Assembly: GCA_033675265.1 (NCBI GenBank)
Contig: JAUJYZ010001292.1
Coordinates: 372,001 to 436,000, forward strand
Reading direction: 5' to 3'
Source: Actinostola sp. cb2023
Lineage: Eukaryota; Cnidaria; Anthozoa; Actiniaria; Actinostolidae
DNA: 64,000 bases
A program made the position numbers and the translations under genes. Numbering within the stretch: the first letter of the stretch is position 1; every line of letters starts with the position of its first letter. This document shows positions 776 through 54,909 of the stretch, piece after piece. Under the pieces are notes generated by a model. It searched no databases. It saw only the letters and a program-made list of their open reading frames with translations, and was not told where the DNA came from.

Positions 776-1140
776 TATGGAGAGCCCTTTGTGCCAAAAA
801 TACCAATCGCTAGTGCTAAATCTCCAATCGTTAGTGCTGAATACCAATCGCTAGTGCTAAATCTCCAATCGTTAGTGCTGAATACCAATCGCTAGTGCTG
901 AATCTTCAATCGCTAGTGCTGAATACCAATCGCTAGTGCTAAATCTCCAATCGTTAGTGCTGAATACCAATCGCTAGTGCTAAATCTCCAATCGCTAGTG
1001 CTGAATACCAATCGCTAGTGCTGAATACCAATCGCTAGTACTAAATCTCCAATCGCTAGTGCTGAATACCAATCGCTAGTGCTAAACGTCCAATAGTTAG
1101 TGCAAACATATCAATCTCTAGCGCTAAACTTCAATCGTTA
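776..1140 (+). repeat. Left inverted terminus with 20/21-bp minisatellite
   Basis: After a 25-bp unique tip, units CCAATCGCTAGTGCTGAATA (20 bp) and CCAATCGCTAGTGCTAAATCT (21 bp) alternate about 17 times and decay near 1,100-1,140. The core GCTAGTGC varies with GTTAGTGC. The same array occurs inverted and longer at 27.1-28.06 kb, with the same unique tip on its outer side. Confidence 0.9.
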
Positions 1141-1159
1141 TTGCTGAATTTTCTCAATC

Positions 1160-1237
1160 GTCGGCGCATGCTCGAGAGTCCAGCGGTGCTCTTCGGCGCA
1201 GGCTCGGTTGAAACACCGCTGGATTCTCGAGCATGTG
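1160..1237. repeat. 25-bp-arm hairpin
   Basis: GCATGCTCGAGAGTCCAGCG and its near-perfect inverse CGCTGGATTCTCGAGCATG are separated by a GC-rich loop of about 25 bp (CTCTTCGGCGCAGG...). It sits between the terminal minisatellite and the first exon of the SAM/HECT gene, so it could be a promoter-proximal or transposase-related structure; this is inference. Confidence 0.75.
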
Positions 1238-8969: not shown

Positions 8970-9121
8970 TGAATAGAGTGATTGCAATAAACCTGTGAAA
9001 TAAAAATTAGATGCTAGTGTGTAATAGTTTAATAAACACAAAAGAAAACAATGGAAATACGGTCTACTAGTGTCTATTAGTTTACTAACTGTTTCATGGG
9101 TTTATTGCAATCACTCTATTA
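8970..9121. mobile_element. 150-bp MITE with CAATAAACC ends
   Basis: ATAGAGTGATTGCAATAAAC (8,972) and its inverse GTTTATTGCAATCACTCTAT (9,101) bound a short non-coding insert. A related MITE with CCAATAAACC ends lies at 15,345-15,508. Confidence 0.75.
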
Positions 9122-9289
9122 TACAAATCACAATTTAATAGTTTTCTAAGAAACAAAATTACAAAACCTTCAAAGTTGTGACCACCCTTTTCTCAATTTA
9201 TATCATATTTGGGTACTGGTATTTATCTATGTTTTTGTTTGTTTGGTTTATTGAAATTCGAAAAACATAAATTTTGCTATTAAAAATAA

Positions 9290-9582
9290 CTTATTTATAT
9301 TATTTCAAGTAGCATTCTTTTCTGAAATAGAAAAAAAAGTTTAACATCATTTATATAAGTTGTAGAGAACTTTTTGCCAGATAAAAAATGTCAATAATTT
9401 GCACAAGGGCGCTTTTGTATAATAAATTAAAAACAATCTGACGTCACCAAATTACAATATCACGATTTCAAACCTTTATAACTCGCAAATGCGAAGCTCA
9501 AATTACAAAATACTGTACCATCCCACTATTCACTTCATATGTAATCGATTTTCAAAATAAAAAAATTCGTGTCATATACACT
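9290..9582. repeat. Half copy of the AGTGCATATCA TTAA-type MITE
   Basis: From about 9,290 to the ACTTTAA at 9,580-9,586 the sequence matches the right half of the MITE at 14,126-14,587 (shared AACTCGCAAATGCGAAG, CATCCCACTATTCACTTCAT). The left arm is missing or strongly diverged. Confidence 0.7.
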
Positions 9583-9703
9583 TTAATTGTTCTTGTTATA
9601 GTTTTGAGCAAACTTTTTGTTATGAGTTGTGTTTTTAAAGAAAACATGTTATATAAGCATGCATGTTAAGTTCAGTTTTATGCTCCAAGTGGAGTTGAAT
9701 TAA

Positions 9704-9990
9704 GGTACCAGGGGACCTTCGTGACCACTGTTTACTGACAGCCGCGTAGCGCACTAACCACTCGTCCAACATGTATAAAAGTATACATTTTCTTAAAGCT
9801 GAATAAATGCAGATTCTAAATATGCTGGAGATGATTTCCTATTTTGTAAATATTTTTTGTTATTGCACATTTTAGAAAATTCGACCGGCCTTGTTCAAAG
9901 AGAATTTTGCACGCGGGAATTCAATCGATTTCTAAACGGAAAGTGCCATTGTAATGAGCACACTTTCACGAGGAGCTAAGACCAGATATA
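9704..9990 (+). repeat. Left terminal inverted repeat of the TTAA element
   Basis: Matches the reverse complement of about 24,600-24,924. Near its tip, read inward-to-outward, it has a tRNA-like stretch (GAGTGGTTAGTGCGCTACGC, as in a tRNA A-box/D-arm region). Inner limit is approximate; the match fades after CACGAGGAGCTAAG. Confidence 0.9.
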
Positions 9991-10302
9991 AAATCAAACA
10001 ACTGACTTTGAAAGTCAGTTGTTTCTTAGCAGGATACATCCTACGCTATTGTTTAGTTCTGGGAGCGGTCGTAGGGGATTAACACCTTTGATTTATAAAA
10101 ATCAACTTTATAACCATTCTGTTTGGTCTCCTGTCATCAATGTTTGTTGTCTTGTCGATTTAGGCATGCTATCTAATTAATAAAGTTAATATGGTGCTTA
10201 CTAAACATATAATGTTACTAAACACGAGGGACTGCGAGCGCGTCATTCAAACTGTGTATGTAATAGTAAGCGCATAAAGCCGGTTACTGTACTCTCGACT
10301 GG

Positions 10303-11468
10303 ATGCAATTTCGCCGGGTATTTTCTCCCTCGCTTAACCCTAGGAAACAATATTATGCCTTGACAAATGAAATATGCGATGGACCCACCAAAAAGTTTGC
10401 CATTTCATCGTTTGGTGCTCGCTTTCCCGAAGAGATCAAGCGAGTTAAGTTCGACACGGTCACCGAAGAAGATGGATCTGTCTCTAACGCGAAGCATTTC
10501 GACCGTGGGAGAACAAAGGAAGAAGTGTACGTGGCCACCGCTTTTGGAATCATTGGCGGACTTATTCGCTCTAAAGACTTGAAAAATTGTAGTTTCTTTG
10601 ATGGCAATTTCAAGAACATCGTAGATTGCATTAATTCGATCGATCTGGTAGCAGATTACTCTCGGCGAGAACGTCAAACTTCAGAGGAGGAGATAGAAGC
10701 CTTGGAAGAAAAGTTGATACTTTCAAGAAAGCACACCGAATCTCTGCAAATACAGTTAGAAGCCTCCTCATCACTCCTTAAGAAATTGAGACTGAAAGAA
10801 GTTACTAACAGAACCCCGCCGCCAAACAGCTCGATTTTCCCGCCAAAACCAGACTCCGGATATCACTCCTCTACAACTCAGGCTGTATCACCTAACATTG
10901 AAGAAATTTCAAAGAAAAATGCTTCACGTCCAACAATCAAAAGAAAGACCGTGGAAAGTCGAGTGAAGTCTGTAAAGAAAGACATTGACGACGTCTGCAA
11001 AAGCCGTAGAGAGTCTTTGTCAACGGTGTTTGCACAGGGAATCCTAGCTGAGGATGAAGCCACTCAAAGCACTCTAGATGAAATGGTGGATATCATCACA
11101 GAGATAAAAGGATATAAAGAAGGGTTCCACTCTATTTTTTCTGGAGAAAAATGGTCAGCTTATTTTAAAAGTCTACGCCGTCCTGACTGGGCCCTTCTAT
11201 ATTACAAGTTGAAGGCAAAACTTCCCGATGAAAGTTGGCAAACCATGCTAAATGTCACAACACTTGGTCAAACTGGGGTAAGTATAGTGTTTGTTTAATC
11301 ATTAATATAGTTCAATATCAATTCGTCAATAAATCGCATCAGTCTTATCTGTTCTGTTATATCCTAGCTTACGGTATCAGTTCGGGTCTTATCAATTACG
11401 GTATACTACTACTACTATTATTATTATTATATCATTATTATTAGTATTATTAGTATTATTATTATTAT

Positions 11469-11551
<83 letters not shown>

Positions 11552-11701
11552 TTAGTATTAGTATTAGTATTAGTATTATTATTATTATTATTATTTTTTT
11601 ATTATTATTATTATTATTATAATTATTATTTATTATAATTATTATTATATTATTATTATTTTTATTTTATTTTTATTATTATTATATTATTATTATTTTT
11701 A

Positions 11702-11785
<84 letters not shown>

Positions 11786-14700
11786 GTTATTATTATTGTG
11801 TAACAAACCCCACCTCTATTTTAATAGAGTGTCCGTTTATTAGAGGTTTTTTTTTTTTTACTGTTAGGTAATAATATGGTTCATATTTAGTTCAAATTGG
11901 AATTAATTTTGATGGTTTATTTTTCAAATGGTAGCCCGTACGTACGGCGAGTTCAATTTGAGCTCTTTGAGGAAATATACGGTATATGTATATATAAACA
12001 CTATTTATCGCAATCCGTACATTTTAATGTTAAATAGTATTCACTAATTGTTTTATATTCTATTTTAGAATTCAAGAGATACCCCTTTGTTATTAACACA
12101 GAGCCAAGTTATAGCTGTTCGGCATATGATATTCCGTATCATTAAAGAAACGATGGGAATAAAAAGAAATCCTCAAGCAAGTAAAGAAGCTTATGAGGTT
12201 GACCTTGAATCGGTTGTGGTCTGGGCGATAAGGGAGCAGAGACTCCACAATCAAGATGGTGAAGAATTGGAGTTTAATCTCAAGCTCGACGGGAGATCTC
12301 TAGGAGGTAACCCATTTTATATTCATTAAAAAAATGAATATAATCAAAAGAACGATATGGGAATGGTTTTCTCTTTCTTTATCCGTCTTTCTCTCATTCA
12401 TTCTTTCTTGCTTCCTTTTTTAATTCCTTTAACTCCTTGAATTCCCTCCTCGTCCCAGTCCCCCTTTCCCTCGGAAAGCCAAAGTCAAGCTACTCAGGCT
12501 ACGAAATCTATAAATGTAGTCGTTGCCGGATGTATAATTGTAGAAAGTCTGGATTTATATATAATACCACAATGGCTAAGAAATCCGATATTGGTACCTT
12601 TACAGGAAGAGATCAAGTTCTTGTTGGGTTGGTACCGATGAATTCAAAATCGAAATTACAAAGCTGCAAAGCGGTTTATCCTCTTGTGATAGCAAACTGC
12701 AAAGAAAATAGGCAAGTTGATTTAAAGTAGAATGACACGTTTGTGGAACCACGTCTTAATTTTATATGTAAATGTTTTGAAAAAATTATCAATCCTCAAT
12801 GTACTGTACTTTATATTTAGGAATGAAATTAAAGGGTTGGTAAAACATCTGAACGCTCAAAAAAATGTTCTTAAAAAAAAAAGAGGGATAAAAGTTGATG
12901 GCAGAGAGTATAATCTAAAATTCACAGGTACCATAATGTTAAATAGCAATTAAAGTTTTTACACTAGGTAATCTGACTCGAGTTTATACTAACGGTGAAA
13001 ATTAAACATTTCATTAGTTACAGCTGACTACAAGGCTCTAAGCCTGCTTATGGTTAAGAAAGGGGACGATGCCGATGATTACCATTTGGGTGGCAAAGGA
13101 ATGGACACTGAATTTTGCATATACTGTTTGACTATCAGGGTAAGGCTAATGATTCAGTACAACAACAAAAAAGTTAAGCATAATTTTCGACGCAATTACA
13201 ATTAATTAACGCAATGCATTAATTATAAACCGCAAACATTTAACAAAAGTGCAAGTGATATTCTTACGTTTTCTTGTACTTGCGTTGTGCCTGGATACAG
13301 TGTTCTCTTGATTTTATGCTGATGTTTTTCTTCTTTTTAAATTTAATTAGGGCTGTGGTTGTAAATTTTCAACTGAGGAGGAGGCATGCATGGGCTGTCT
13401 AAAGAAATGCTTTGAAAGAAGTAAAGCTAACATTGGGAGGTACGTGACCAGGGGAGTTCCCCCAAACCCCTCCACCCACCACCACCCCCCTCCGCCTTCA
13501 CTCTTCACCCCGGGGATCGAACTGTTTGATCAGTCAAAATGTAAACGCTGCAGTTTCAAACATACACGTCAAAAACTTTGATAGTGTAAACTAGCTGGGC
13601 CTTACTCTAAGTATGTTTTCAAAATGCCCAATAACTGCAATAACGTTATTCTTATCGAGATTAGGTGTCCGTTGTCCGTAATGTAGCTTTTTTTTAAACA
13701 AAAATGTCATGGGGATTGTGCAGGCACTGAGACAGCAGTCTGTACTAATGAGGTGTCCGGATGTATTATTATTATTTTCATTTTCTTCCACAGTTGGAAT
13801 ACAGGCTTACGAGATGATTTACAATTTCTTCTCGATGAGGAACTGAGCAATGTTATGCTCTGTTCTTTGCATTGCGAAATGCGGAATACAGAGCAATTGT
13901 TAGGTTCTGTTGGCCTATTTGCACATAGGTGCTCCGTTTTTGGAGGACTTTAATAGAGTATTATCACAATATGGGCCTGAAAGCTTCAAAGACAAGCGTA
14001 TTTCAGTTAAGCTCAAACCTGGACAGGAATCAGCAGTAGAAAAAGGAAACATTAAGGTTGCTACATTTTCAGGTATATTATTTATTCCATGACACCCTGG
14101 AGTTTTATGATTGTTTTACATTTAAAGTGCATATCAGGGTTATTTGTTTCTTTTGAAAATCGATTACATATGAAGTGAATAGTGGGATGGTTCAGTATTT
14201 TGTGATTTGAGCTTCGCATTTGCGAGTTATGAAGGTTTGAAATCGTGATATGCTAATTAGGTGACGTCAACGCAGGCATTAGACGTAACTTATTTATATA
14301 TTTTCAAGTAGCACTCTTTTCTAACGTAGAAAAAAAAACAAGTTTAACATCATTTATATAAGTTGTAGAAAAACCTATTGCCAGTTTAAAAATGTCAGTA
14401 ATTTGCAAAGGGGCGCTTTTGTATAATAAATGATGCGTGCGTTTGACGTCACTGAATTACCATATCACGATTTCAAACCTTTAAAACTCGCAAATGCGAA
14501 GTTAAAATCACAAAATACTGAACCATCCCACTATTCACTTCATATGTAATCGATTTTCAAAATAAATACATAACCCTGATATGCACTTTAATGACTTTGC
14601 TAAATACACTCATTGGGAATTGAATGAGTTTAAAAAAAAACAACCTCACTGAATTGGATGATATCACGGAATATATAAGTCATATAATGTTTCATTCTTT

Positions 14701-17700
14701 AAAAGGTCCAACGGAAAGAGAAATCTTGGAGAAGCTTGAAATAATAATGGAAGTTGGCTTACCTCTAGACAAGATAATACATTACTACAAAAATACCCAA
14801 AATGCAGCAAAGCAAATCTTGCTTGACAGATATACCTTTTGTGAATATATGAAAACAGAGGTATAATACTGTATACATGTATGTAGGTTATAAGACCAAC
14901 TTGCTAATTGACTGATATAATACATGTACACATCATAATCATCATTATCCTATTGGAGCTAATTGCGGTTACACTATAGACCTCTTGCCCACGGGAAAGC
15001 GATTTTTTTACGCGAGTAAAGCCGCATCTACACGAGCAAATTTTCGTTGACAAGTTTTCCTTGACAAGGAAGACTTGCTTGACTTTAATGTGTAGATGAT
15101 AACAAATTGTCAATTTTTCCTCGGCTTGTCAAGGAAAACTTGTCAAGGAAAACTTGTTCGTGTAGATGCGGTTTAATCGATCTTCCCAGTTTGAAATAGC
15201 CTCCGTGAAATTACCATGGATACATAAAAAAGTACAAAAGAAATCGGCTGATTCGATTGGATGATTTCTTTCAACACAAACTGAGAAAAGTCGTTTTAAT
15301 GGCTGAGTTTTATTGGGCTTTTTATTTCTAAACTCATGTTATACCGATTCCAATAAACCTCGACACTACTAAAACGGGTGCTAATTGATTGTCAGTATTT
15401 ATTAGATGCAAAGAAACAAACTGAAAAGAATCGAAAACAGGAGTGAGTGTCTAATAGTGTGTATTGGTGGAGTTAGTGATGCCCGCAGCGGTTTATTGGA
15501 ATAACTCGGCTATACGTAGATTAATATTAAAGTACAAACGTACACTAAAAGTGTGACATATGTACGAATATAGAATGACACACGTGACATTAAAATGACA
15601 TTGACTGTATGTGGGGATCGAAGCATTTTGCACACAGAACAATAGAAAGTTGCGTAGCACTTCAGTACACGCTTTGTTAGTAATACTTTCTGATTTCATC
15701 AGGTTATTGACAAGAAGTTGAAAGATGGTATGCATAAAAGAGACTATGGGACACACCAAGAGACTATTGATCTTAAAAATCTTCCACGTAAGTCATCATA
15801 CAAAGTTTAATTACATTTTAAAACTCACCTTTCTCTTGATTCCTATAAGGGTTCAATTGCGCTTGTGTTGGCCGCATATTTATTTCGAAACTTGCATTTT
15901 ATGAGTTGAACATTTCAAGATTTGGCTGTGTTTAGGTTTCATTTGAATTGTAATCAAATATGTTCCATCTACGCTGTCAAAAATGTTTGTATAAATTAAT
16001 TCCAAGCTTTCCGTCTCCCCTCTTCTGGCTTGAATCATCACCCCTGTTTTAATTCCCGAAAATTCTCGCCGGTAATTGTTCACTGAAGGAAACTGTCACA
16101 TTCACGTTGCTATTTTTTTTATTGAACAGAACTAAAGGAGTACCTGGAGAAACAATATTGTTATTGGGATTCCAAGCAATCTGAAATCAAGGAGAAATTT
16201 GTTAAAGCTTTCCCTGAGCTCAAGCATACAAAGAAGCAGAAACACAAGCAGCCAAATGTATTAGGAGCAACTTATGCAGCAGAGCTCGAGAAAGAGTTTT
16301 ATACCATGGTGGGTGTTTGATTCATGGGTTCAATAATATATGGCATACATGTAGGGGTCTGACATACATGTACATTGCAATAATAATAATAATAGTTTTC
16401 AGTGTATTAATAATAATAATAATAATTAATAATAATAATGATAATATTAACTTCAGGTTTTCGTCAAATGGAGAGACTTAGCCAAAACCATGAGAGAAGA
16501 AATATATGAAGATAATCAAGAAGAAGAAATTGATATATATGACATGAAGGTAAAAAAAAAAACTATCATATAGGCCTATACTGCATGGTTTATTCAAACC
16601 TATAAATTTTGTATACAGTGAAACCTCTATTAGCAGATCGACACTTTCGGGATGTAGCTTGGTGTCCGCTTAACAGAGGTGTCTGTTGAATAGGGCCGGT
16701 ACGTACGGTTTGTTACTGACACAGTAAATATTTCGGGACTCAACATGTAGGATATTATTATAGTGTCCTCCCAACAACACGGTGTCCACTTGTTTCACTT
16801 GTCAAACACTCACTACAAATCAGTATAATCACTTTGTCAATTATAGGCCAAAGAATGGGGTTATCTTCTAAGAGAGCTGTTTGGTGACAGATTAGGAACA
16901 GGTGACTATGGTCATTTGACCATAGAACATACCGCAATGCTCTTCAGAAGATTTCGATCTTTCAGAAGCTATTCAAACCAAGGATTTGAAGCCCTTCATC
17001 GATTGCAAAGGCAGGTGTACACTCGTGCTACAAATCATGACGCAAAAATACCTGGAAAGTCTTGTAAGTTAATCGGCCAGCAGTATTTAATTAGAATATG
17101 CGGGATATAGAGTGCAGTGATTTGTGAAAACTTTGTTTGTCATGCATGTCTTCTAACATTCTTGGAATGGAATAAAATATATTTAGGTTTAAATTCAAAA
17201 TTGTTATTTTTAGTGGAAGATATCCTTGTCCATCACTATGCTGAAAAGCTTCTGTTCTTTCGACTTTGTGTGAATGAAGCTGCTGAATGCTACATTTCAG
17301 GTATCATTGTAGTACAATCATGATTGGGCCGGCGAGCTACTTTTTTAAATTATATATATCACATACCATATTTTCTCAATAATAAATGCTGGAAAAATGC
17401 CGGGTTGACAAGCTAAGGCTAACCTTAAAATAAATGGAGGCATTTATTTGAGAAAGTATGGTAATGATGTCAGTGTAATATTTTTGATGTGCAATTTAAA
17501 AAAATCATTGATATATCTATTCAGGTACATTCATAAGTTTATATTGCTTTTTGTTTATTGCTCAATTCAACACATCATGTAGGGAAGCAGTTCAAATTTC
17601 GTGGTTGTGGGTGGAAACTTGCAAATTCACCCAAGATTGGCGACGAAGATGCTAAATGGCTAGCAGCAATGCAAAACCTGATGGAGAAAGTGATTGGCAG

Positions 17701-19201
17701 TGATTTCTTGGAGTACTTTTTTGACAAATCTTCCGGTGTAAAAGTTGTTGAGAAAATGATCCCAACTTATAAATATCACCATGATTCCTGGGAGGAAGAG
17801 TACGACATTCTTTTTCAAACCATCTGCCAACCGGAATTTAACAGCACAAAAGGGCCAATCAAGAAGAAAGCAAGGAAATCACTCTTTAACACCAGCTTGA
17901 CAGAGGACAATAGCGCTAGCAATCCCACGCCCATGGAAACAGAAGACCATACTGATGTGCAATCATGTCCTGAGCAGCTATCGGCCACCAAAGATAAGAA
18001 AACTACAAAACAAGTGCCAAAAACCGCAGGCAAAGCAAGTTCCTGCACTACCAACAGCTCGTACCAACTCCAGTGCCCTGTAGATGCAGCTTTATCTACG
18101 CATGATTTAAATATTTGCAAGTCGAGCAGTAGGGCAACTCGTCAACAATTGGCAAATGTAATCTTGCCAAATGTGGAGAATGTGGGTAATGGCAAAATTT
18201 CTGTGGTTTCAAAACCAAGTCAATTATTAGATGCATATTCTATTACAACTCGCCCCTCTAAAACATCACTTAACTACGCTGAAAAGCTTTTAACCAAGTT
18301 AAGAAAGGATGGAATGTCACCAAACAATTATGCAGTAAAGTTTGGTAACATTGGAATCTTTGATGTGGATTCTCTTTCCACCCTTCACAAGTTTTGTGAG
18401 ATAAGTGACGTCAGGCATGCTGTCATTTCAGAAGTCCAATGGTTAAATATAGATGATGGACTAGATGTGAATAATATAATGAAGTTATCATCTGCACTAT
18501 TGGAAAATGAGCCAACAAAAGTGATTATCAAGGTAACTTGTGGTTCCAACACAATAGCAGTCGACACAATATCTTTCGCATATCTTATAGGTGAAAGGTA
18601 TGTGGACAACATGATGATTGATGTCTGCCTATACAAGTACATGTTGGACTTAAATGACCAAGGGCAGTTTCAAACATTGCTATTTCCCAATTCAGTGTGG
18701 ACATGGGAATCGGGCAATGAGGATCATCTGAAAACACAGATTGAAGCTTGCATAAGCCACTGCAAAGTAACAACAACAGGCACTCTCCAGATAGTCATCC
18801 CTGTCTACATGAATAAGCACTGGGGTATTATCTTTGTAGATTTTAAAGATAATACAATGTATTTTGATGACGGTTTGAAACGTAAGATACCCAAGGGTAC
18901 TCTTAGTGCATTGAAACATATTCTAGATATTGTTCAAGTAGTTTTAATGCCAAGCACTACAACAGCCGTGTGGTGGAGCACTGTGCAATCCTTACAGAGA
19001 CTAGGAATGCCTAGACAAGATGCAAAGGATGCTGTTCAAAGTAATCAAGGTTCTGGAAGCTGTGGGATTGGAGTTGTCTTAGCAGGAAAGGAATTAATGG
19101 AGAATGGGAGCACTGCCATTAATAATTTTTCGTGGAGCTTTGCTAGGAGCAGATACCACCGAAAACAGCTAATGATTCAGATTTTGAAATGGGCACAATG
19201 A
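10303..19201 (+). CDS. 14-exon transposase-like protein with C-terminal Ulp1/C48 protease domain
   Basis: Exons: 10303-11277, 12069-12306, 12459-12726, 12821-12927, 13018-13139, 13351-13439, 13794-14072, 14706-14860, 15703-15787, 16130-16308, 16457-16549, 16847-17063, 17214-17300, 17583-19201. All introns are GT-AG and phases agree at every junction; the protein would be about 1,503 residues. One extra base breaks exon 7 (T5 run at 13,937-13,941). N-terminal part has a coiled coil at about 125-170. A Cys-rich block (FCIYCLTIRGCGC, then MGCLKKC) lies near 560-590 and SLHCEMRNTEQLL near 630. Candidate DDE residues are D533 (TADYKAL), the LHCE region and E911 (YSNQGFEALHRLQRQ); this is inference. 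The last exon ends in a Ulp1-like triad: His1377 (NKHWGIIFVDF), Asp1393 (MYFDD), Gln1453 and Cys1458 (QGSGSCGIG). Ulp1 enzymes cleave SUMO-type modifiers. Confidence 0.8.
11398..11795. repeat. ATT / AGT trinucleotide microsatellite in intron 1
   Basis: About 400 bp of ACT/ATT, then (AGT)n, then (ATT)n. Just after it, CCTCTATTTTAATAGAGTGT resembles the pogo-like repeats elsewhere. Confidence 0.95.
14126..14587. mobile_element. 462-bp TTAA-type MITE in intron 7
   Basis: AGTGCATATCAGGGTTAT and its inverse AACCCTGATATGCACT are the ends; arms of about 130 bp include TCGATTACATATGAAGTGAA and CTCGCAAATGCGAAG. Flanked by TTAA at 14,122-14,125 and 14,588-14,591. It lies entirely in the intron between exons 7 and 8, so it does not affect the coding frame. 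Related copies: 9,290, 48,006 and 54,710. Confidence 0.92.
15016..15173. mobile_element. Small MITE, CCGCATCTACACGAGCAA ends
   Basis: GCCGCATCTACACGAGCAAA at the left and TTGTTCGTGTAGATGCGGTT at the right are inverse copies. Inside, ACTTGTCAAGGAAA is repeated. Located in intron 8. Confidence 0.8.
15345..15508. mobile_element. MITE with CCAATAAACC ends
   Basis: CCGATTCCAATAAACC and GGTTTATTGGAATAACTCGG are inverse ends of a 160-bp non-coding insert; related to 8,970-9,121. Confidence 0.65.
16616..16705. repeat. pogo/Tigger-like MITE end
   Basis: TACAGTGAAACCTCTATTAG followed by GGTGTCCGCTTAACAGAGGT. Located in intron 11 of the transposase-like gene. Confidence 0.5.
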
Positions 19202-19394
19202 TAGATCTAATCTATGAAACAGTATTTAGAACTAAATAGCTAGCACAAATGAGAAATACTTTTTACAGGTTAAATGTGGGCACTATATGAAATAATGTTT
19301 CACTATGTAATATATTTCTTGACAGTCTGTCTTACTGATAGTTTAGTCACTAGTCCAAACTGTAAGCATGGGTTATCAGTACAAGAACTACACA

Positions 19395-20165
19395 GACCTG
19401 TAGACAGCAGATATGCGTGGGTGCTTAGTACACCTGTATGTCTGTGTGATGTATTTTGATCACCTGGTGTCTACCTGGGTCACCCAGACACACACACACA
19501 CAGACCTGTAGACAGCAGATATGCGTGGGTGCTTAGTACACCTGTATGTCTGTGTGATGTATTTTGATCACCTGGTGTCTACCTGGGTCACCCAGACACA
19601 CACACACACAGACCTGTAGACAGCAGATATGCGTGGGTGCTTAGTACACCTGTATGTCTGTGTGATGTATTTTGATCACCTGGTGTCTACCTGGGTCACC
19701 CAGACACACACACACACAGACCTGTAGACAGCAGATATGCGTGGGTGCTTAGTACACCTGTATGTCTGTGTGATGTATTTTGATCACCTGGTGTCTACCT
19801 GGGTCATCCAGGTCACACACACACACACACAGACCTGTAGACAGCAGATATGCGTGGGTGCTTAGTACACCTGTATGTCTGTGTGATGTATTTTGATCAC
19901 CTGGTGTCTACCTGGGTCATCCAGACACACACACACACAGACCTGTAGACAGCAGATATGCGTGGGTGCTTAGTACACCTGTATGTCTGTGTGATGTATT
20001 TTGATCACCTGGTGTCTACCTGGGTCATCCAGACACACACACACACAGACCTGTAGACAGCAGATATGCGTGGGTGCTTAGTACACCTGTATGTCTGTGT
20101 GATGTATTTTGATCACCTGGTGTCTACCTGGGTCACCCAGACACACACACACACACACATGTATT
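19395..20165. repeat. 108-bp minisatellite, seven copies
   Basis: Copies start at 19,395, 19,503, 19,611, 19,719, 19,832, 19,940 and 20,048 (GACCTGTAGACAGCAGATAT...). The period is 108 bp apart from one 113-bp unit that has an expanded CA run. Each unit ends in (CA)n. Copies are almost identical, which suggests recent expansion. A diverged unit (ACACAGACATGTATGCAGCA) follows near 20,190. It lies between the transposase-like gene and the kinase gene. Confidence 0.95.
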
Positions 20166-20817
20166 CATCGATAATTGTATCAACAAGAACTACACAGACA
20201 TGTATGCAGCAGATCTGTCCGGGATATAGATAGTACCCACAAATGGTGAAGTTTTATTTCCGGAATCTGTTGCAAATTATTCATTAAATTCATTGAATCA
20301 ATCATTAAAAGAAAGTTGAGCAAATCTCAATAATTCCGCAGTCAATTATAGATCCTGTTCAGTTTCAAACTAGACCGGGAACTAAAGAACTATTTGTACT
20401 AGAGAAACTTTCTGATCTGATAGAAACGAAGACACAATTTTCCAATTGTTGAAGTGCTCTGTACATACGTCTTTGGCCAGATGACTTCAAACTTCCTAAT
20501 CACTAATTTTAAAACTTGTCAACTATACAATAGAGCCTTTGTATACATGTTTACTCTTATTTATAGTCGACTAACAGGTTTCTCGCCCCGTTTCTCACAG
20601 TCTTATCAAACGAAGGCTTTTTAAAAGAAAAGAACAGTGTGGATATGCTGATGCCATGGCCAGGAAGTCAGAACAAAATATAACAGTCAATCAAAAGTTA
20701 ATTAGTTTAAAACATACAACAGAGCCTTTGTAATATAGTGTTTACCGTAGCTACTCAGATTACTGTTCTTTAGTATAATCACATGAAAGGTTACTCAACT
20801 TTGAATACAAGAACATT

Positions 20818-22043
20818 ATGGATAGCAATCGACGAAAACCGAGGGAGATAAAAAAGTTTAAAAGGAAACTGTGGCTCGCCAGGAAGACAGAAAGAAGACG
20901 CGAGGCAAATAGGGAAGACAGAAGGCAGAAGTTTCTGAACAAACACACGTGAAACAAACCGAGTTGGAAGCTAAAGCTCTACATAAGTCCTCAAAGGTAG
21001 AAGTTTCTACACAAGTAAACTTTGTAGCTGTCGATGAAGCGATTGCAATAAAGCCGTCCAATGCCGATGTCCAGGCGTCTATCTCACGTGGTCACGTAAT
21101 GATCGAGGCAGCACGCAACATGAATGTACAGAAAGGACTGACAATTAAGTTGCGCCCTTCAATTGAAGATCAAAAGAGAAAATTCCGTGCTGTTGGAACC
21201 AACAGAAAAGACGTTGTCATAGCACCACCTGTTAAACTTAGAAAGAGGGAAACGTCAAAGCTGAAAGAGCTAGAACCCGATCTTATTTCAAGAATTACCG
21301 AGGTTAGAGCGCTGGGTCAAGGAACATTCGGACTTTGCTTTTTAGCTAAGTATAGAAACATCATCGTAGCAGTGAAACGGTATTTGGACAACGATGGGAA
21401 AAAGAGTTTATCTAGTCTTCAAAAATCGGCCAAGCAAGAAGCAAGTGTTTTACTAGAACTTGGTGACCACAAGGGATTACCTTTCTTATTTGGAGTCTGT
21501 ACTCAAGCTAAACCGATCCAGATAGTATTGCTTTATCATGGAGATGGATTAACAAATCTCACTATTTACCAGGCAACCAAGTCAAAGCCAGAATTATCGG
21601 TTGATACATGGTGTTCTATTTTTCGTTTGACCGCCGAAGCTCTTCAGTACGTACATGCATGTGGTTATATCCACAACGACATTAAGTCAAACAATGTTGT
21701 CCTCGAGAAATTCAATTCAAACTCCCAGGATGAGGTACTCTATAACCCTGTGGTTATTGACTTTGGATGCAGTGTAAAAGAAAGCCTTGCCAAACCACCA
21801 ATTCCCAAGGCAGTTCACCTGCAGCGTGCCAACAAAGACAGCTACATCGCTCCAGAACTGTTAACTGGATCGAGACCTCCAAGTTGTAGTAGTGACGTTT
21901 ATTCTTTTGCCAAAATGGTTGTTTTTGTTTCAAGTCGTTGTCCTTTTGAAGTACCATCTTTAATTTCACAATGCCTTTTAAAAAATCCTGACGAGCGACC
22001 TTCGTTAGTAGACGTAATCGCATGTTTCTCGCCCGGTATATAA
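20818..22043 (+). CDS. Transposon-borne protein kinase (TKL/Tyr-kinase-like fold)
   Basis: From 20,949 the open frame carries all kinase signature elements: Gly loop GQGTFG, VAVK (Lys143, numbered from 20,949), Glu in AKQEASVLL, catalytic loop HNDIKSNNV (Asp244; the usual HRD Arg is Asn), DFG (Asp271), APE in YIAPELL and DVYSFAKMV. It is thus likely to be catalytic. There is no ATG at 20,949; an ATG at 20,818 (MDSNRRKPREIKKFKRKL) opens a basic frame that stops at 20,950-20,952, and the kinase frame is open from 20,913. The best reading is one gene of about 408 residues with a one-base deletion between about 20,913 and 20,945. The N-terminal basic region could bind DNA or localise to the nucleus. 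An AATAAA-like signal follows at about 22,130. The zinc-finger gene converges from the right. Confidence 0.82.
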
Positions 22044-22589
22044 CTACAATGCAACAAGTTGCGAAAGTTGTATATAGATTGATATATCCGTACACAATAT
22101 TTAGAAGAGTAATTTGTTTCAGTTGTTAGTAATAAACTATGCGCTTGCTTTCGGAGAGATTTTTTGTTTGTCAGCGCTGTAATATAATAGGAATCATTGT
22201 TGCCAGTATAATAGGGTATTTGGAGTTTCCGGCTTTTATAGTTAGGACAGGCGAAGCCTTATTCACACCTTTATATGTCAAAATTACTTTTTAAATTAAT
22301 ACTGGGGATTCAGTGTTGTTTAAAAAAATGATAGTAGAGTTTATATAGAAACAATAGCTATGTAGTAGTTTTATGGATTGAGATATGTAGAATATGATAT
22401 CCACGCTCTGCTTAGCAAAAGGCTAAAGCAACATAACCATGTCAAATTTTTTTAGCCTTGTCGAAACGTATATGATGATACCTGTATGATATTCAACAAG
22501 GACTGTTCTCGTCAGCCCTCCCCCCCCCAAAAGGTAAGTGGTAAGTGCCTCATTATAATAATAATTTATAATTATTATTTGTAATGGAT

Positions 22590-22975
22590 AGAGACGTTTT
22601 AGTCTCACTATTGAATATCTTATTTTAAAACAATTAGACTACAAAACGCGCCGAATTGACTATTTGACTCATATAAAAAAAAGAGAACGAGTAGTCTAAT
22701 TGTTTTAGTAGAAACCAACTAGCATACTACCTTCGAATTTATACCAATATTTATTGATTTGTTTTTGTTCAATATCACGCAATAGAATGAAATTATGCCG
22801 GTGTATTTATAGTTCACAGGTTTATGAAAACCACTCTATTTTAATTACTTGGATAGCGTTAATACTTCCTTAGTAGAGTCGTTTTAGTCTAACCTATTCA
22901 GTATAGTGAGATAAATTTAGCCAAGCAGCAAGGCCCGCATTGAGGGTTGACTAAAACGTCTATAGCGTACGAAAA
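22590..22975. repeat. Inverted repeats between the kinase and zinc-finger genes
   Basis: TAAAACAATTAGACTAC (22,626) and GTAGTCTAATTGTTTTA (22,692) form a hairpin, and GAGACGTTTTAGTC (22,591) has its inverse GACTAAAACGTCTA at 22,950. This convergent intergenic stretch is AT-rich and otherwise non-coding. A role as shared transcription-termination sequence is possible but not shown. Confidence 0.6.
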
Positions 22976-22981
22976 TACTGT

Positions 22982-23792
22982 TTACAAATATATTTTATTT
23001 ACGAAGAATCTGAAAGATAATTTACCAAAATGAGACTTATATAAGTTGGGCCACCATTGGATTTCAAACTCCCTTGTTCGTCTTCCTTCTCCTTCACCAA
23101 TGACGATGGAACTCCGTATCTTTGGCTTTGCTTGGGAGACCCCACGGGGCTGTTGTGCACGATGTCGTGCTGCTTCAAGAGCAGCAAGAGGGTCGTCTTC
23201 TTCATAAGGGTCGCACTCGACTAAGCGGTGATCGGTATCATAAGCGGCATTAATATTGATAGCCACTTCCGTTTGTTCATTTAGGAAGTCAGTGAAAACA
23301 TCCTCGTCATAAATTCTGTAGGCGATGCGGACTGCTTGCTTTTTCATGATCGGTTGCTTCAAGTGTTGACAGTTTCGGACGTTATAAACTGGAGGCGAAC
23401 CTATTTTCCAAATGATGTGGTTGAAATACGATTCTAGAGCTTGAAGAATATCGATTTTCACCCATTGACCTATAGAATGATATTATAGATGAGTTAATTC
23501 TTCCCTCTAACTATTTAAAAAGTCAGCGTTAAAGCTACGTACCTCCTACTTTTGGGTAATGAACACCATTTACTCGTTCGGCTACACAGGATAAAAAGGC
23601 CAAATAATTCTTGTATGATTGTTTACGTATTTTTCTTGGCACTGGTAAGGAAATCTGATTGGCACTCGCATCAAAGAAGATGCACGAGTTTGATACTTTG
23701 CCATGGCTTTTCAAAGTATGCCTACCAAGGGATCGGCTATTGGTGAACTTTCTGTTACAAATGCTACAGTGAGTTGAGCAAGATTTAGACAT
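22982..23792 (-). CDS. Two-exon C2H2 zinc-finger protein of the TTAA element
   Basis: Exon 1 (23,543-23,792) starts MSKSCSTHCSICNRKF and continues SRSLGRHTLKSHG, one C2H2 finger (C-x2-C-x12-H-x4-H). Donor GTACGT at 23,542; acceptor TTCTATAG ends at 23,470; exon 2 is 22,982-23,469. The split Gly codon fits, giving 245 residues. Exon 2 encodes YFNHIIWKIGSPPVYNVRN, an acidic stretch (ECDPYEEDDPLAALEAARHR) and EFEIQWWPNLYKSHF. No known family was recognised beyond the finger. Convergent to the kinase gene, with its start close to the right inverted repeat. A DNA-binding partner of the transposase is a plausible role, by inference only. The frame is intact. Confidence 0.7.
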
Positions 23793-24600
23793 CGTACTTT
23801 TACGCTACAATAGAAGTAATAAACGCCAAGCTGAAACCACGCGTTAGTAAAATGTCACTGTTTAAAACGGAAGTGTAAACAGACAACCACAGCCAATAAG
23901 AAAACGGATAATAGAAAGGCACATCCGGAATATACCAAGAGACTAAAAATAACCATATAGCGCGACACTATATAAATAATGCTTTGTTGATAATAATGTT
24001 GCCGTTTTATTGCCGCTCGAGCACTTCTTTCTAACTGCAATTATATCCGCCTTGCGAAATGAACTCACCTCACGCGAACAGAGTCTACAGACAAATACAC
24101 CACTGAACTAAAAGAAAAGCCGAAAATAACAAAACAACTATATCACAGGGACAAGTAAATATTTGTTTATAAAGTTTATAAACTTGTCGTTCAAAAGGTT
24201 TTGAAGAATCAATCATCTCAAAATCACAATGTATTTAAAGCGCTAAAGAATTCGAAGTTGCAGGCACTTTTAGAAAGCCGCTATAAAAAGTCAATGTTCG
24301 TCTCTAGCCGTTTTCGTTAATCAAATACTCAGAGCATAGACTATGCTATTCATTGGGATATTATAATCATAAGTGAGCTGCAGGGAATGGCTGACCAAGA
24401 GACCATATAAATACTACTTAGTATTATGGTCTCTTGCTGAAATATAGCAGTCGTATTCTTCTTACTTGTGTTTATCTAGTAATCTCTTTACATGACAGGC
24501 TTTCTTTATCATGATACAGGGTGATTAAAGAGTTGTGACGTTTTAACACTTGCCTAACACTATTTTGACATATGATTGAGTGAAATAATGGTCCCCCAGG
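23793..24600. other. Non-coding spacer and probable promoter of the zinc-finger gene
   Basis: No convincing coding frame. A short hairpin lies at 24,398-24,437 (AAGAGACCATA...TATGGTCTCTT). The rest is AT-rich and unremarkable up to the inverted repeat. Confidence 0.5.
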
Positions 24601-24924
24601 ACAATTTTTTTCTCTGGGCTTAGCTCCTCGTGTCTAAAAAACCAAATATCTCCTCAACAAATGCGTTTATCGGAAATCGGAGACACGGTTTTTTAAAAAT
24701 CGATTGAATTCCCGCATGCAAAATTATCTTTGAACAAGGCCAGTCGAATTTTCTAAAATGTGCAATAACAAAAAATATTTACAAAATAGGAAATAATCTC
24801 CATCATATTTAGAATCTGCATTTATTCAGCTTTAAGAAAATGTATACTTTTATACATGTTGGACGAGTGGTTAGCGCGCTACGCGGCTTTCAGTGAACAG
24901 TGGTCACGAAGGTCCCCTGGTACC
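24600..24924 (-). repeat. Right terminal inverted repeat of the TTAA element
   Basis: Inverse of 9,704-9,990; outer end ...CCCCTGGTACC followed by TTAA at 24,925-24,928. Contains GACGAGTGGTTAGCGCGCTA, the tRNA-like stretch. Confidence 0.92.
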
Positions 24925-24946
24925 TTAAAATATATGTTGTGGTATA

Positions 24947-25106
24947 ATAATGTATTATTTGTTCCACTTTTAGGACATCATTTTACCCTCATAATGTACA
25001 TCCTGTCAGTTAAATCCAACCAAAACACATAACTTACCCACCATAAAACCCTAAACCTAACATACATGTATGAATTATGTCCTATAAACCAGTGGAACAA
25101 ATAGAT
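24947..25106. mobile_element. MITE, ATTTGTTCCAC ends
   Basis: TATTTGTTCCACTTTTAGGA and its inverse CCTATAAACCAGTGGAACAA bound about 160 bp of non-coding sequence. Confidence 0.65.
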
Positions 25107-25311
25107 ATTGGTTACATCACAAACTTTCTAGGTATACTTTTTGTACAGTTTTAGTTCGATTTGGTACTGTTTATTATTACTGGAAATACAAAGCAATTGT
25201 AGGACAAAACTAGAAGACTGTGTAATGTTGTTGTTTGGTCAATTATAGCCATATTTTGAGGTCCCAATCTGGACATAAAAAAATACTATGGTCACTACCG
25301 ACCATACTTCA

Positions 25312-25473
25312 CTATTAAAGTGATTTTACATTGCCTGTGAAAAAAATAGTGACACTAAATAGTTAGTAGTAGACACAATTACTGTACACTGTGCTTGTTT
25401 GTTCTGTGTGGACTGTGTTACTATTAAGTATACATCTTTTTTTCATGGGCCAAGTAAAATCACTCTAACCACT
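25312..25473. mobile_element. MITE, AGTGATTTTAC ends
   Basis: TTAAAGTGATTTTACATTGC and its inverse AAGTAAAATCACTCTAA are the ends; a TTAA duplication is likely, with one base changed on the right. It overlaps the 3' end of the integrase gene slightly. Confidence 0.6.
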
Positions 25474-26867
25474 AAAATAGATCACGAAGGCCGAGGTACA
25501 GATCAACACCATAGGAATCGCTGAACTGTAAAGGATCTATTGCAGATATAACTGACGTCTGCCTGTCTGTGAATGTAACTGTAGTGTCTGGAACATCCAC
25601 TTGTTGTATATCAAAACCATTAGGGGCTGGACCTTGTGGATCAATTCCATAATCATTTAGGTCTATTGGATCCTCATTATAAGCAGCAATACTGGAATGG
25701 CACCACAGCTGATAAGGTGACCAGTTATGCTCTGTACGCAAAGGGTGATGATTGTGAGCCTCAGAATATTCCATCAGTGCTTTATTTATTCGTGGAGTAA
25801 AAATGTAATGTAGACAAAAAAGATCCCAATCATCTGTTGGACTTAGTTGACTACAATCTTCTAACATATAAAACAGTGAATAGTACAAGGCACAAGCACA
25901 CCTGAAAACATCCCTCCATAGTCTCTCTATTCGTTGATTATGAGTTGAACTACCAGCAATGTGACTCCCCCTGTTTAAGCCTTTAACAATAAACATTGCA
26001 TAAGCAACATCCACATTTTCTCCTCCTTTGTCGGATCTCACACGAGAGGGCCATCCATATCTTTATGTTGCTTGCATAAAACACTCGCTAACAGTTGATG
26101 CACGATTGTTATTGGAGCATTTTAAAAATACAACAAGGCGTGTAAAGCCATCGATTCCCCCATGGATGACTAATCTCCACCTGATAAAACAATGCAGCCC
26201 ATCTATGTGCCACTCTTTGAATGGTATGTAATTCTCTTACGAAACTGTGTATTGGATCAGTGCGCAACAGTGATTCTCTCACTCTTTTCCTGGTTATGTG
26301 TATACCCAAACTTCGCATATGACCTGTTATCATTCTTAATCCACAGGTAGGATAATTTGTTGTCAGGCGATGCATTACATCATCAAGGTCACTGTCTGAT
26401 ATTTGAGAATACCTCTCTCTCTTTTTGCAAATATTGAATTCCTCACACCTTCTGTAAAGAGTTCTTCTGCTGATTAACAATGTTTGAGAGATTTGGTCCA
26501 TGGTTCGTCCAACAGATATAAGGAATTCCACCTGGTCTGGGTTGATGGGGATAAGTGGTCTCCCCCTATTACCATTATGATTATTCTGACGCGTTGTCGC
26601 TTCAAAAGTAGGTTGGGGTAAGGACCTTACCTCTAGTTTATATAGTTTATGCACCCAATGCTGTAAAACACGACTCAGTAAAGACAGAAGATCATTTTGT
26701 CGAAGATTCCCAGCATTCTGACTGTTAACTTGTTGCAATACTGTAATGCAATTCTGAAGGCTATTCACAATTCTTAAAACAAAACCTGTATCTTGGATAT
26801 CATTGTAGATTGCACACTGCTGCAAAATAGAATCGACTGATTCCAGAAACGAACTGAACTCTGTCAT
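25472..26867 (-). pseudogene. Integrase-core (DDE/rve) transposase of the outer element, frame-broken
   Basis: Starts with MTEFSSFLESVDSILQQCAI at 26,867. An HTH-like segment (GRTMDQISQTLLISRRTLYR, about residues 120-140) is followed by SDLDDVMHRLTTNYPTCGLR. Core residues are visible in three pieces: [12 protein letters not shown] (first Asp, in a second frame near 26,200), [11 protein letters not shown] (second Asp, 26,040) and [17 protein letters not shown] (catalytic Glu, 25,930). The tail has [18 protein letters not shown]. This family is widespread in cnidarian and fish genomes, from memory. One frameshift near 26,230 and one TAA near 26,070 disrupt the frame. The gene reads inward from the right minisatellite terminus, so it is the natural transposase candidate for the outer element. 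Confidence 0.75.
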
Positions 26868-27124: not shown

Positions 27125-28056
27125 AGCTCTAGCCATTGGAGATTTAGCGATGGAAACTTCGCACTAGAGATTTTAATAGCACTAGCGATTGGTATTCAGC
27201 ACTAACGATTGGAGATTTAGCGCTAGCGATTGGTATTCAGCACTAGCGATTGGAGATTTAGTGCTAGCTATTGATATTTTTGCACTAACGATTGGAGATT
27301 TAGCACTAGCGATTGGTATTCAGCACTAGCGATTGGAGATTTAGCACTAGCGATTGGTATTCAGCACTAGCGATTGGAGATTTAGCACTAGCGATTGGTA
27401 TTCAGCACTAGCGATTGGTAACTAGCGATTGGTATTCAGCACTAGCGATTGGAGATTTAGCACTAGCGATTGGTATTCAGCACTAGCGATTGGCATTCAG
27501 CACTAGCGATTGGTATTCAGTCAGCACTAGCGATTGGTATTCAGCACTAACGATTGGTATTCAGCACTAACGATTGGAGATTTAGCACTAACGATTGGTA
27601 TTCAGCACTAGCGATTGGAGATTTAGCACTAGCGATTGGTATTCAGAACTAGCGATTGGTATTCAGCACTAGCGATTGGTATTCAGCACTAGCGATTGGA
27701 GATTTAGCACTAGCGATTGGTATTCAGCACTAGCGATTGGAGATTTAGCACTAGCGATTGGTATTCAGCACTAGCGATTGGAGATTCAGCACTAGCGATT
27801 GGAGATTTAGCGCTAGCGATTGGTATTCAGCACTAGCGATTGGAGATTTAGCGCTAGCGATTGATATTTTTGCACTAACGATTGGAGATTTAGCACTAGC
27901 GATTGGTATTCAGCACTAGCGATTGGAGATTTAGCACTAGCGATTGGTATTCAGCACTAGCGATTGAAGATTCAGCAATAGCGATTGGTATTCAGCACTA
28001 ACGATTGGAGATTTAGCACTAACGATTGGTATTTTTGGCACAAAGGGCTCTCCATA
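27125..28056 (-). repeat. Right inverted terminus with long minisatellite
   Basis: About 44 units of AGCACTAGCGATTGGTATTC / AGCACTAGCGATTGGAGATTT (inverse of the left array), with variant CACTAACG and a decayed inner edge (27,125-27,200). The outer tip GGCACAAAGGGCTCTCCATA matches the left tip. Confidence 0.9.
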
Positions 28057-40400: not shown

Positions 40401-42132
40401 AAGTACGACGGGGTATGGCTCCAGCGCATATCTACATCTAGTCGATGATCAAGGTCATATTCACTGTGCATTTCTATTTGGCAAGTCACGCCTTGCACCC
40501 ATTAAAGCGACAACGGTACCAAGATTAGAACTAACCGCAGCAACGGTATCTGTCCGCATTAGCCATATGATAAAGAAGGAACTAGAAGTAGATCAGGCAT
40601 CCATGATTTACCACACCGATTCCACCACAGTTCTGCGCTACATATTCAACGAACAACGAAGATTCAAAGTGTTTGTCACAAACAGAGTTCAGCTGATTAG
40701 AGAGTGTTCCAACCCAACACAGTGGAGATTTGTTCCTACTTCTATTAATCCAGCTGACGACGCCTCAAGAGGAGTCGACGCCACTACCTTGACCGAGGAA
40801 CAACAACGATGGTTAGTTGGCCCTGCGTTCCTATGGAAAGGAGAGAAAGAATGGCCAAGTCAACCAACCACCTACTGTCAGCTACAAGATCCCAGGAGAT
40901 GACCTAGAGTTGAAGTCCATCCCTGCCTGTGCAACTGATGTCAGCAACTCAATCCTGAGTATACAAAGGCTGATGGGTTACTTCTCCAACTGGTACAAAC
41001 TGAAGAAACCAGTCGCCGTTTTCTTACACTTGAAGGAGCTTCTCAAACAAAGATATAATAAACAGCTAGAGCACAACAACGTGGAGCACAAGCCACCGTT
41101 TACTGTCAATGACATGCAAAGTGCTGAAAGTGCCATCATCAAGTTTGTACAGTTAAGTCACTTCAGCAGTGAAATTGATTCCCTGGTCAACGCAGCAAAT
41201 GTTGAAGACCCACGGAGCTGGGCATCACGTGAGATCACACCTGTAAGAAGATCAAGTTCAATTATCAAGTTCAATTAAACGTCTAGATCCATACATCGAT
41301 CGTCATGGAATAATTCGAGTAGGCGGACGCCTTCGCTGAGCTAACATATCAGAAGAAACCAAACATCCCATCATCCTGCCACGCAAAAGTCAGGTAACAA
41401 CGATGATCATCCGTCAAGCCCACGAAGAACTGGGTCACGCAGGCCGAGCTCATGTCCTGAGCAAATTGATAGAGAAATATTGGATCATTGGCTCTAACTC
41501 GGCTACACGCAGTCTTATCTACAAGTGTGTCACATGTCGTCGCATTAAAGCCCCGCCAAGCGAACAGAAAATGGCCGACTTCCCGAGTTTTCGTCTTCAA
41601 CCTGCTCCACCATTTACGTACGTGGGTGTTGATTACTTTGGGCCGTTCCTGATCAAAGAAGGGTGAAACGTTATGGTGTCATCTTCACATGTCTTGCGAG
41701 TAGAGCAGTACATATCGAGCTAACTTCAACACTCGACACCGACTCCTGTGTACAAGCAATACGACGCCTCATCGCCCGCTGTGGACCAGTGCGTGAAATC
41801 CACTCAGATAACGGGACCAACCTTGTTGGTGCTGAAAGAGAATTGCATCAGACGATACAGGAAATAGATGACAAGAGAATAAGAGAGAAGCTACTGCAAC
41901 ACAGCATCGACTGGAAATTCAACCCGTCCACCGGGTGGTAGCTGGGAGCGACAGATCCACTCAGTAAGAAAGATCCTAGCTGGTCTTCTCAGTGAACATG
42001 GCGAACAAATGAATGAAGAATCGCTCCACACCCTGATGTGCGAAGTGGAGGCCATAATCAACTCCAGGCCACTAACACTGATGTCCAGCGAACCTGATGA
42101 TCTCACTCCTTTGACGCCTAGCCAGCTATTAA

Positions 42133-42809
42133 GGTGACTCCGTTATCATTCTCAGCGCACTCGTCTATGACAAACTTTGGGTCATAACTTCCTCTGCTTT
42201 TATGCAATTGCCATAAAACATTGGCAACAATTAGAGCTATCGTTCACCTATGATACAATATAATTCGATTGCACTGCAGAACATTTTTTTAAATAATATT
42301 AGAACTTGAGTAAAGTCAATGTTTTGGATAAAATTGGATATTGCGAAAAATCCGTCCGTTTTTTTTGGATGAAAGTTTTGGAATCACTTTAGATTGACAT
42401 AATTCATAACCTGAGCAAGTTTTAGCAAAATCGTTGGAGCGAAAGCACGGCCGCATGAAAACAACCAAAATTAAGCACGGAAATTAGCTCCAACGATTGC
42501 TTTCGCTCCAACGATTTTGCTAAAACTTGGTCAGGTTATGAATTATGTCAATATAAAGTGATTCCAAAACTTTCATCCCAAAAAACCGAGATTTTTCGCA
42601 ATATCCAATTTTATCCAAAATATTGAGTTTACTTAAGTTCTAATATTATTTTTTTTAATGTTCTGCAGTGCAATCGAATTATATTGTATTATAGGTGAAT
42701 GAAAGCTCTAATAGTTGCCAATGTTTTATGGCAATTGCATGAAAGCAGAGGAAGTTATGACCCAAAGTTTGTCACAGACGAGTGCGCCGAGAATGATAAC
42801 GGAGTCACC
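42133..42809. mobile_element. 677-bp TTAA hairpin MITE inside BEL integrase
   Basis: GGTGACTCCGTTATCATTCT and inverse AGAATGATAACGGAGTCACC are the ends, with arms of about 330 bp making almost the whole element one inverted repeat. TTAA at 42,129-42,132 and 42,810-42,813. Its removal rejoins the integrase reading frame exactly. A relative lies at 56,900. Confidence 0.95.
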
Positions 42810-47990: not shown

Positions 47991-48005
47991 CGAGTTGTCA
48001 CTTAA

Positions 48006-54905: not shown

Positions 54906-54909
54906 TTAA

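What the first reader, a model, noticed from the sequence alone, without database searches (positions are those of the whole stretch)
9704..24924. 15.2-kb TTAA transposon with three cargo or accessory genes
The TTAA duplication, about 280-bp inverted repeats and a complete set of enclosed genes (transposase-like/Ulp1, protein kinase, C2H2 finger) define a single mobile unit much bigger than usual cut-and-paste elements. GG-starting ends fit Kolobok better than piggyBac, but the protein has no THAP domain. I cannot check Repbase, so a named family may already exist.
Basis: partly seen in the sequence, partly recalled or inferred. Interest (0 to 1): 0.93.

Follow-up and report, generated by a model that had tools for sequence, protein, structure and literature searches.

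The report
RAG1-like kinase transposon inside MITE
In a sea anemone genome, a short TTAA-flanked repeat has been split by a 14.7-kb mobile element that encodes a transposase predicted to fold like RAG1, the enzyme that cuts antibody genes, and a protein kinase that nearly always sits with it; none of the nine copies examined left duplicated target bases beside its ends, so the element likely joins DNA in an unusual way.

Summary
The TTAA sites and long inverted repeats are real, exactly at 9704-24924, but are not the big element's ends. They are two halves of a palindromic MITE, found elsewhere in this genome as at least 34 short copies (median 686.5 bp). A separate 14,666-bp element (9967-24632) is inserted in it. 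Its own ends are exact 14-bp inverted repeats, CACGAGGAGCTAAG / CTTAGCTCCTCGTG, seen in independent copies. It encodes a 14-exon, 1,449-aa protein (transposase core plus C-terminal Ulp1-type protease domain), a protein kinase and a C2H2-finger gene. A template-free model of a 41%-identical relative of the core matches RAG1, BbRAGL and Transib best in the PDB. The D, D, C(2)C, H(4)H, E motifs of the RAG1/Transib/CACTA/Chapaev group are conserved. The kinase is a standing part: between the ends in 8 of 9 paired copies, and downstream of 42 of 94 ORF1 loci. The C2H2 gene appears subfamily-specific. None of nine paired insertions has an exact, abutting 2-12-bp target duplication, unlike described relatives (2-5 bp). 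Host: Actinostola sp. cb2023; all named transposase relatives are Anthozoa. Repbase could not be checked. Kinase role and duplication-free joining are inferred.

The parts
9704..9966 (.). left half of the interrupted TTAA MITE (TSD TTAA at 9700-9703)
   Evidence: arms up to 98% identical genome-wide, 34 paired copies among the scored matches; one search shows two intact copies (L003, L008)
24633..24924 (.). right half of the same MITE (TSD TTAA at 24925-24928)
9967..24632 (+). the RAG1-like kinase transposon, 14,666 bp, no detected target duplication
   Evidence: boundaries shared by independent copies
9967..9980 (+). left terminal inverted repeat CACGAGGAGCTAAG
24619..24632 (-). right terminal inverted repeat (exact reverse complement of the left)
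9997..10023 (.). conserved subterminal palindrome AACAACTGACTTTGAAAGTCAGTTGTT, 30 bp from the left end; one base pair of its arms changes on both sides in L016 and L017
10303..11277 (+). transposase exon 1 (N-terminal region, no known domain)
12069..12306 (+). transposase exon 2; first predicted catalytic Asp (LKLDGRSL)
12606..12711 (+). transposase exon 3 (GC donor)
12821..12927 (+). transposase exon 4
13018..13139 (+). transposase exon 5; second predicted catalytic Asp (VTADYK) and C(2)C (FCIYC)
13351..13439 (+). transposase exon 6
13794..14072 (+). transposase exon 7; one-base length difference in a homopolymer against copies C154 and C585
   Evidence: read from C154
14706..14860 (+). transposase exon 8
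15703..15787 (+). transposase exon 9
16130..16308 (+). transposase exon 10
16457..16549 (+). transposase exon 11
   Evidence: public annotation P0010
16847..17063 (+). transposase exon 12; H(4)H (YGHLTIEH) and predicted catalytic Glu (NQGFEA)
17214..17300 (+). transposase exon 13
17583..19201 (+). transposase exon 14; C-terminal Ulp1-type (C48) protease domain, motifs HWGI, FDDG, GSGSCG
20913..22043 (+). protein kinase ORF (VAVK, HNDIKSNN, DFG)
   Evidence: Pfam Pkinase E 7.4e-23
23543..23792 (-). C2H2-finger gene, putative exon 1
   Evidence: zf-C2HC_2 and zf-C2H2 matches below their cut-offs; splice sites by eye
22982..23469 (-). C2H2-finger gene, putative exon 2
   Evidence: splice sites by eye; stretch present in copies C14, C1580 and C648
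19369..20163 (.). tandem repeat of about 108-bp period between transposase and kinase

Best explanation
The window holds a 14,666-bp DNA transposon, inserted inside an unrelated TTAA-flanked MITE, whose transposase is predicted to share the RAG1/Transib fold and is likely to cut and join its CAC..GTG ends as RAG1 does, while the nine copies with both ends located show no exact abutting target-site duplication. Shown by sequence: the nesting, the ends, an open 14-exon gene model (exon 7 read from a sister copy), the C-terminal Ulp1-type protease domain, the kinase between the ends in 8 of 9 such copies, and the absence of exact 2-12-bp duplications. Predicted: the RAG1-like core binds the 14-bp ends (and perhaps the conserved palindrome 30 bp inside the left end), excises the element with its D-D-E site, and joins it to a target by strand transfer with no or almost no stagger. 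Inferred only: the Ulp1-type domain would remove SUMO-like tags from transposase or chromatin proteins, and the kinase would phosphorylate the transposase or a host repair or cell-cycle factor to license movement.
Against: The model is middling (mean pLDDT 69.6, pTM 0.66, 23 sequences); TM-scores of the top 11 Foldseek hits are 0.22-0.40 with rmsd 10-20. No Pfam model, RAG1 included, and no significant PDB sequence match for the core. D1-D2 (80) and D2-C (28) spacings (P0038) differ from RAG1 as I recall it (about 108 and 19). 52 of 94 ORF1 loci show no kinase in range (cause not examined; searches score only part of their candidates), and paired copy C1407 shows none. Two of the three pairs behind the dN/dS values include a copy with a stop codon. 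In 5 of 9 paired copies the two 14-bp ends differ by one base, and C330 (33.7 kb) and C1194 (22.7 kb) may be composite. Right ends were found by exact motif, so copies with eroded ends would be missed. C14 flanks agree at 4 of 5 bases, C1407 has a 6-bp repeat set two bases off the end, and C1007 lies in a minisatellite. No expression or transposition data.
Confidence: 0.76

Rival explanations
1. It is an ordinary, already catalogued CACTA/EnSpm, Chapaev or Mirage family of Anthozoa whose Repbase entry I could not see, with 2-4-bp duplications that happen to be obscured here.
For: CAC..GTG ends, C(2)C and H(3-4)H motifs fit the CMCT group described in PMC12730594 (passages read). Ulp1 genes in CACTA elements are recalled; the grapevine cut-and-paste paper counts the word Ulp1 5 times (search listing only). 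Only solved structures were searched, and no CMC transposase is among the rows shown, so RAG1 may only be the nearest solved relative.
Against: No exact abutting duplication of 2 bp or more at 9 of 9 paired sites from several families. No Pfam transposase model matches the core. The listings of the paper searches show no title or abstract start describing such a family with a protein kinase.
Confidence: 0.3
2. It is a single 15.2-kb TTAA transposon (Kolobok- or piggyBac-like) as first read.
For: TTAA on both sides and 96% identical long arms flank all genes.
Against: Arms recur as 34 short paired copies too short to hold these genes; interior copies elsewhere start and stop at 9967 and 24632, not at the arms. 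Among the scored arm matches only the window copy is known to surround the genes; the flanks of six unpaired arms outside the window contig were not examined.
Confidence: 0.02
3. The copies are excised linear elements captured at chromosome breaks by end joining rather than placed by strand transfer.
For: No duplications, and a two-base shortfall against MITE copies at the window site, resemble end-joining junctions.
Against: The nine copies have both end motifs with single-base changes only; end joining usually trims ends. This is partly by construction, as right ends were found by exact motif; on checking I raised this rival from 0.15 to 0.2 for that reason. At C1194 the other arm of a palindrome suggests a junction without base loss (by eye).
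Confidence: 0.2
4. The kinase is a host gene caught by chance.
For: It resembles BRAF and IRAK4 kinase domains.
Against: Same strand and same side at 42 of 94 loci, down to about 30% kinase identity; between the ends in 8 of 9 paired copies.
Confidence: 0.03

Closest known systems
Transib and RAG-like (RAGL/ProtoRAG, TransibSU) transposons
   Same: RAG1-type fold in the predicted core, CAC at the termini, D-D-E with C(2)C and H(4)H
   Different: No RAG2-like gene seen, no 5-bp duplication (5 bp is typical in PMC7204232 and PMC4411706, passages read), ends CACGAGG rather than the RSS-like heptamer, Ulp1-type domain and kinase present
CACTA/EnSpm, Mirage, Chapaev, Plavaka, ESTA, Lanisha (CMCT clade, PMC12730594, passages read)
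   Same: Motif set and 5'-CA..TG-3' ends
   Different: Described to make 2-5-bp duplications; none here; the term protein kinase does not occur in that paper's main text
IS3EU transposons of fungi (PMC12730594, passages read)
   Same: Transposase plus a kinase gene in one DNA transposon
   Different: Alpha-kinase in opposite orientation to the transposase, 6-bp duplications, TAYGG ends
Ginger transposons (PMC2836005, search listing and start of abstract only)
   Same: A DNA transposon paper in which Ulp1 is mentioned 21 times
   Different: Integrase-type (Gypsy-like) transposase
Spy transposons (PHIS; PMC4482050, passages read)
   Same: Cut-and-paste element without target duplication
   Different: Different transposase group; strong AAATTT target preference, and no AAATTT across the nine junctions here

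Membership tests
CMCT clade (CACTA/EnSpm-Mirage-Chapaev-Transib) | D, D, E with C(2)C and H(3-4)H between second D and E | tested here: met
   definition from PMC12730594
CMCT clade (CACTA/EnSpm-Mirage-Chapaev-Transib) | 5'-CA..TG-3' termini | tested here: met
CMCT clade (CACTA/EnSpm-Mirage-Chapaev-Transib) | 2-5-bp target-site duplication | tested here: not met
   0 of 9 paired insertions
Transib / RAGL transposon | RAG1-like catalytic fold | tested here: met
   (prediction on a relative, mean pLDDT 69.6)
Transib / RAGL transposon | 5-bp target-site duplication | tested here: not met
RAGL transposon | RAG2-like (kelch/PHD) partner gene | tested here: inconclusive
   Pfam scan of nine stop-to-stop pieces in the element showed no kelch or PHD; short pieces were not scanned
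Transib / RAG1 / CACTA / Chapaev lineages | placement in one lineage by phylogeny | not testable with these tools
   no Repbase or reference transposase sequences on hand
Kolobok or piggyBac | TTAA target duplication at the element's own ends | tested here: not met
   TTAA belongs to the MITE; none at the element's ends in nine copies
Ulp1/SENP (C48) protease | His-Asp-Cys motifs and family profile | tested here: met
   PF02902 E 0.0012, just under its cut-off, in relative P0040; no Pfam match for the window domain itself
Protein kinase | Pkinase fold with Lys, HxD and DFG motifs | tested here: met

The most novel reading that the evidence does not exclude
A separate anthozoan superfamily of RAG1-fold transposons that integrates without duplicating its target and carries its own kinase as an obligate control gene: a transposase-plus-partner system parallel to RAG1-RAG2, with a kinase in place of RAG2.
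Probability: 0.4. Interest if true: 0.88.

Novelty: new variant of a known kind. Interest (0 to 1): 0.74.

Why it matters
RAG1 relatives are studied to learn how a transposon became the antibody recombinase and how its re-insertion was tamed. A recently moving RAG1-fold element in corals and anemones with no RAG2 seen, a linked kinase, a fused SUMO-protease-type domain and no target duplication would give an independent case of partner-gene control and of altered strand transfer in the same enzyme fold. It also shows how nested insertion can imitate a giant transposon.

Tried and rejected
Single 15.2-kb TTAA unit: rejected by copy boundaries. My first by-eye choice of the Glu in TIEH as catalytic was dropped: that column is E in 15, D in 6 and S in 1 of 22 letters, while the Glu of NQGFEA is E in 21 of 24. 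A tRNA-like end of the MITE was suspected; ARAGORN (bacterial code) found none in 9000-25500. Rfam gave nothing at gathering thresholds in the whole window. Coral MITE paper (PMC2872659, passages): those CMITEs are about 100 bp with CCC ends, not this MITE. KolobokP (PMC9587614, outline and abstract) does not fit. No own-genome count for the Ulp1-type domain or the C2H2 gene, and no RAG1-family search of the genome, was obtained because the search machine stayed busy. A second structure prediction was not possible.
Full report
What was checked. The letters are there: TTAA at 9700-9703 and 24925-24928, arms 96% identical. The window lies in G000:C318 of a 424-Mb genome. The contig lengths of C1407, C1007 and C318 equal those of contigs that encode public proteins of the sea anemone Actinostola sp. 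cb2023, among them QZH41_010173, whose sequence follows this locus.

The repeats belong to another element. A search with the left arm gave 76 matches (two of them in the window contig; 40 of 957 candidates scored, so a lower bound). I could pair 34 copies head to head within 1 kb, spanning 392-699 bp, median 686.5. Two copies printed in full (L003, L008) are palindromes with TTAA on both sides. The window MITE reads ..ACACTTT[insert]TCTAAAAAACC.. where printed copies read ..ACTTTGTTCTAAAAAACC.., and its central stretch is also shorter.

The real element. Copy C585 matches 9968-24408 at 99.2-99.5% in its two main pieces, and C154 matches from 9967 to its contig end at 99.2%; both lose similarity at the (C/T)ACGAGG motif. 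C14, C1580 and C648 match the right side at 99.7-99.8% and stop at CTTAGCTCCTCGTG, 24632 (the C648 alignment takes in two further chance bases). The window's ends are exact 14-bp inverted repeats. The pattern CACGAGRAGCTWAG occurs 31 times in the genome against 3 for the reversed pattern. With the left ends it gives nine copies with both ends: window 14,666 bp, C14 14,768, C1580 13,134, C585 about 21.9 kb, C977 14,420, C1007 16,064, C1407 14,981, C1194 22,664 and C330 33.7 kb. In four the two ends are identical over 14 bp (window, C14, C1580, C977); in five they differ by one base. C330 and C1194 may be composite. Because right ends were found by exact motif, eroded copies are missed. About 30 bp inside the left end is a 27-bp palindrome; in L016 and L017 one base pair of its arms changes on both sides.

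Target duplication. At none of the nine sites do the bases directly beside the two ends form an exact repeat of 2 to 12 bp; the best is 4 of 5 at C14. C1407 has a 6-bp repeat set off by two bases, and C1007 lies in a minisatellite. C1194 lies in a palindrome whose other arm suggests a junction of equal length (read by eye). The TTAA of the host MITE shows that such marks can persist at this locus.

Accessory genes. The C-terminal domain matches yeast Ulp1 by profile (E 5.5e-5) with HWG, FDDG and GSGSCG motifs; P0038 and P0040 carry core and protease in one annotated protein. Coral and octocoral relatives P0016, P0036 and P0039 end in a different domain. The kinase (Pkinase E 7.4e-23) gave 109 genome matches, 101 loci after clustering (109 of 286 candidates scored). 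Of 94 ORF1 loci, 42 have it 5-25 kb downstream on the same strand, against 1 with it on the opposite strand in that range and 3 with it upstream. It lies between the ends in 8 of 9 paired copies; C1407 showed none. Of 26 kinase stretches inspected, the HxD-type motif was found in 24 and DFG in 24. dN/dS is 0.20-0.40 in the three of 11 pairs where dS could be estimated, two of which include a copy with a stop codon; the other eight are saturated. The C2H2 stretch is in the same-subfamily copies C14, C1580 and C648, but C977, C1007 and C1194 have their right end 342, 347 and 721 bp past the kinase match, too short for it.

Mechanism. Shown: near-identical copies at separate sites (99.2-99.8%), precise ends, no duplications. 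Predicted: RAG1-like cutting at CAC ends. Inferred: strand transfer with little or no stagger; kinase and protease acting on transposase, chromatin or repair proteins. Precedents seen in passages: alpha-kinase genes in fungal IS3EU transposons and the CMCT definition (PMC12730594), Spy elements without duplications (PMC4482050), RAGL elements with RAG2-like partner and 5-bp duplications, with RAGL sequences also in cnidarians (PMC7204232), and the Transib/Chapaev relationship (PMC4411706). The listings of paper searches show no family with this gene set in titles or abstract starts; Repbase itself was not available. Because the duplication test fails, I do not file it as Transib, RAGL or CACTA; I say that it works like them.

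Noticed in passing
window 25475-26062 (-): Integrase core domain (PF24764, E 5.4e-48) just right of the MITE: probably part of another mobile element.
   Followed up: no
window 799-1160 and 27125-28041: Tandem repeats of about 41-bp period, similar to each other on opposite strands.
   Followed up: no
window 42129-42813: A 685-bp self-complementary stretch (89%), MITE-like.
   Followed up: no
window 14118-14591: Short repeat family inside a transposase intron, with relatives at 9287-9590, 48002-48666 and 54705-54906; the stretch is also in copies C154 and C585.
   Followed up: partly
P0039, P0036, P0016 (Oculina, Desmophyllum, Paramuricea relatives): The Ulp1-type C-terminus is replaced by another domain with an NTCPIDN motif (and GQHY in P0039 and P0016), possibly another cysteine protease; no Pfam match in P0039 and P0016.
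   Followed up: partly
G000:C585:1112097-1133998: This copy is about 7 kb longer than the window copy; similarity breaks at window 24408, probably a further nested insertion.
   Followed up: partly
genome-wide, for example L003 and L008: The palindromic TTAA MITE with GGTACC ends; its own transposase was not sought.
   Followed up: partly
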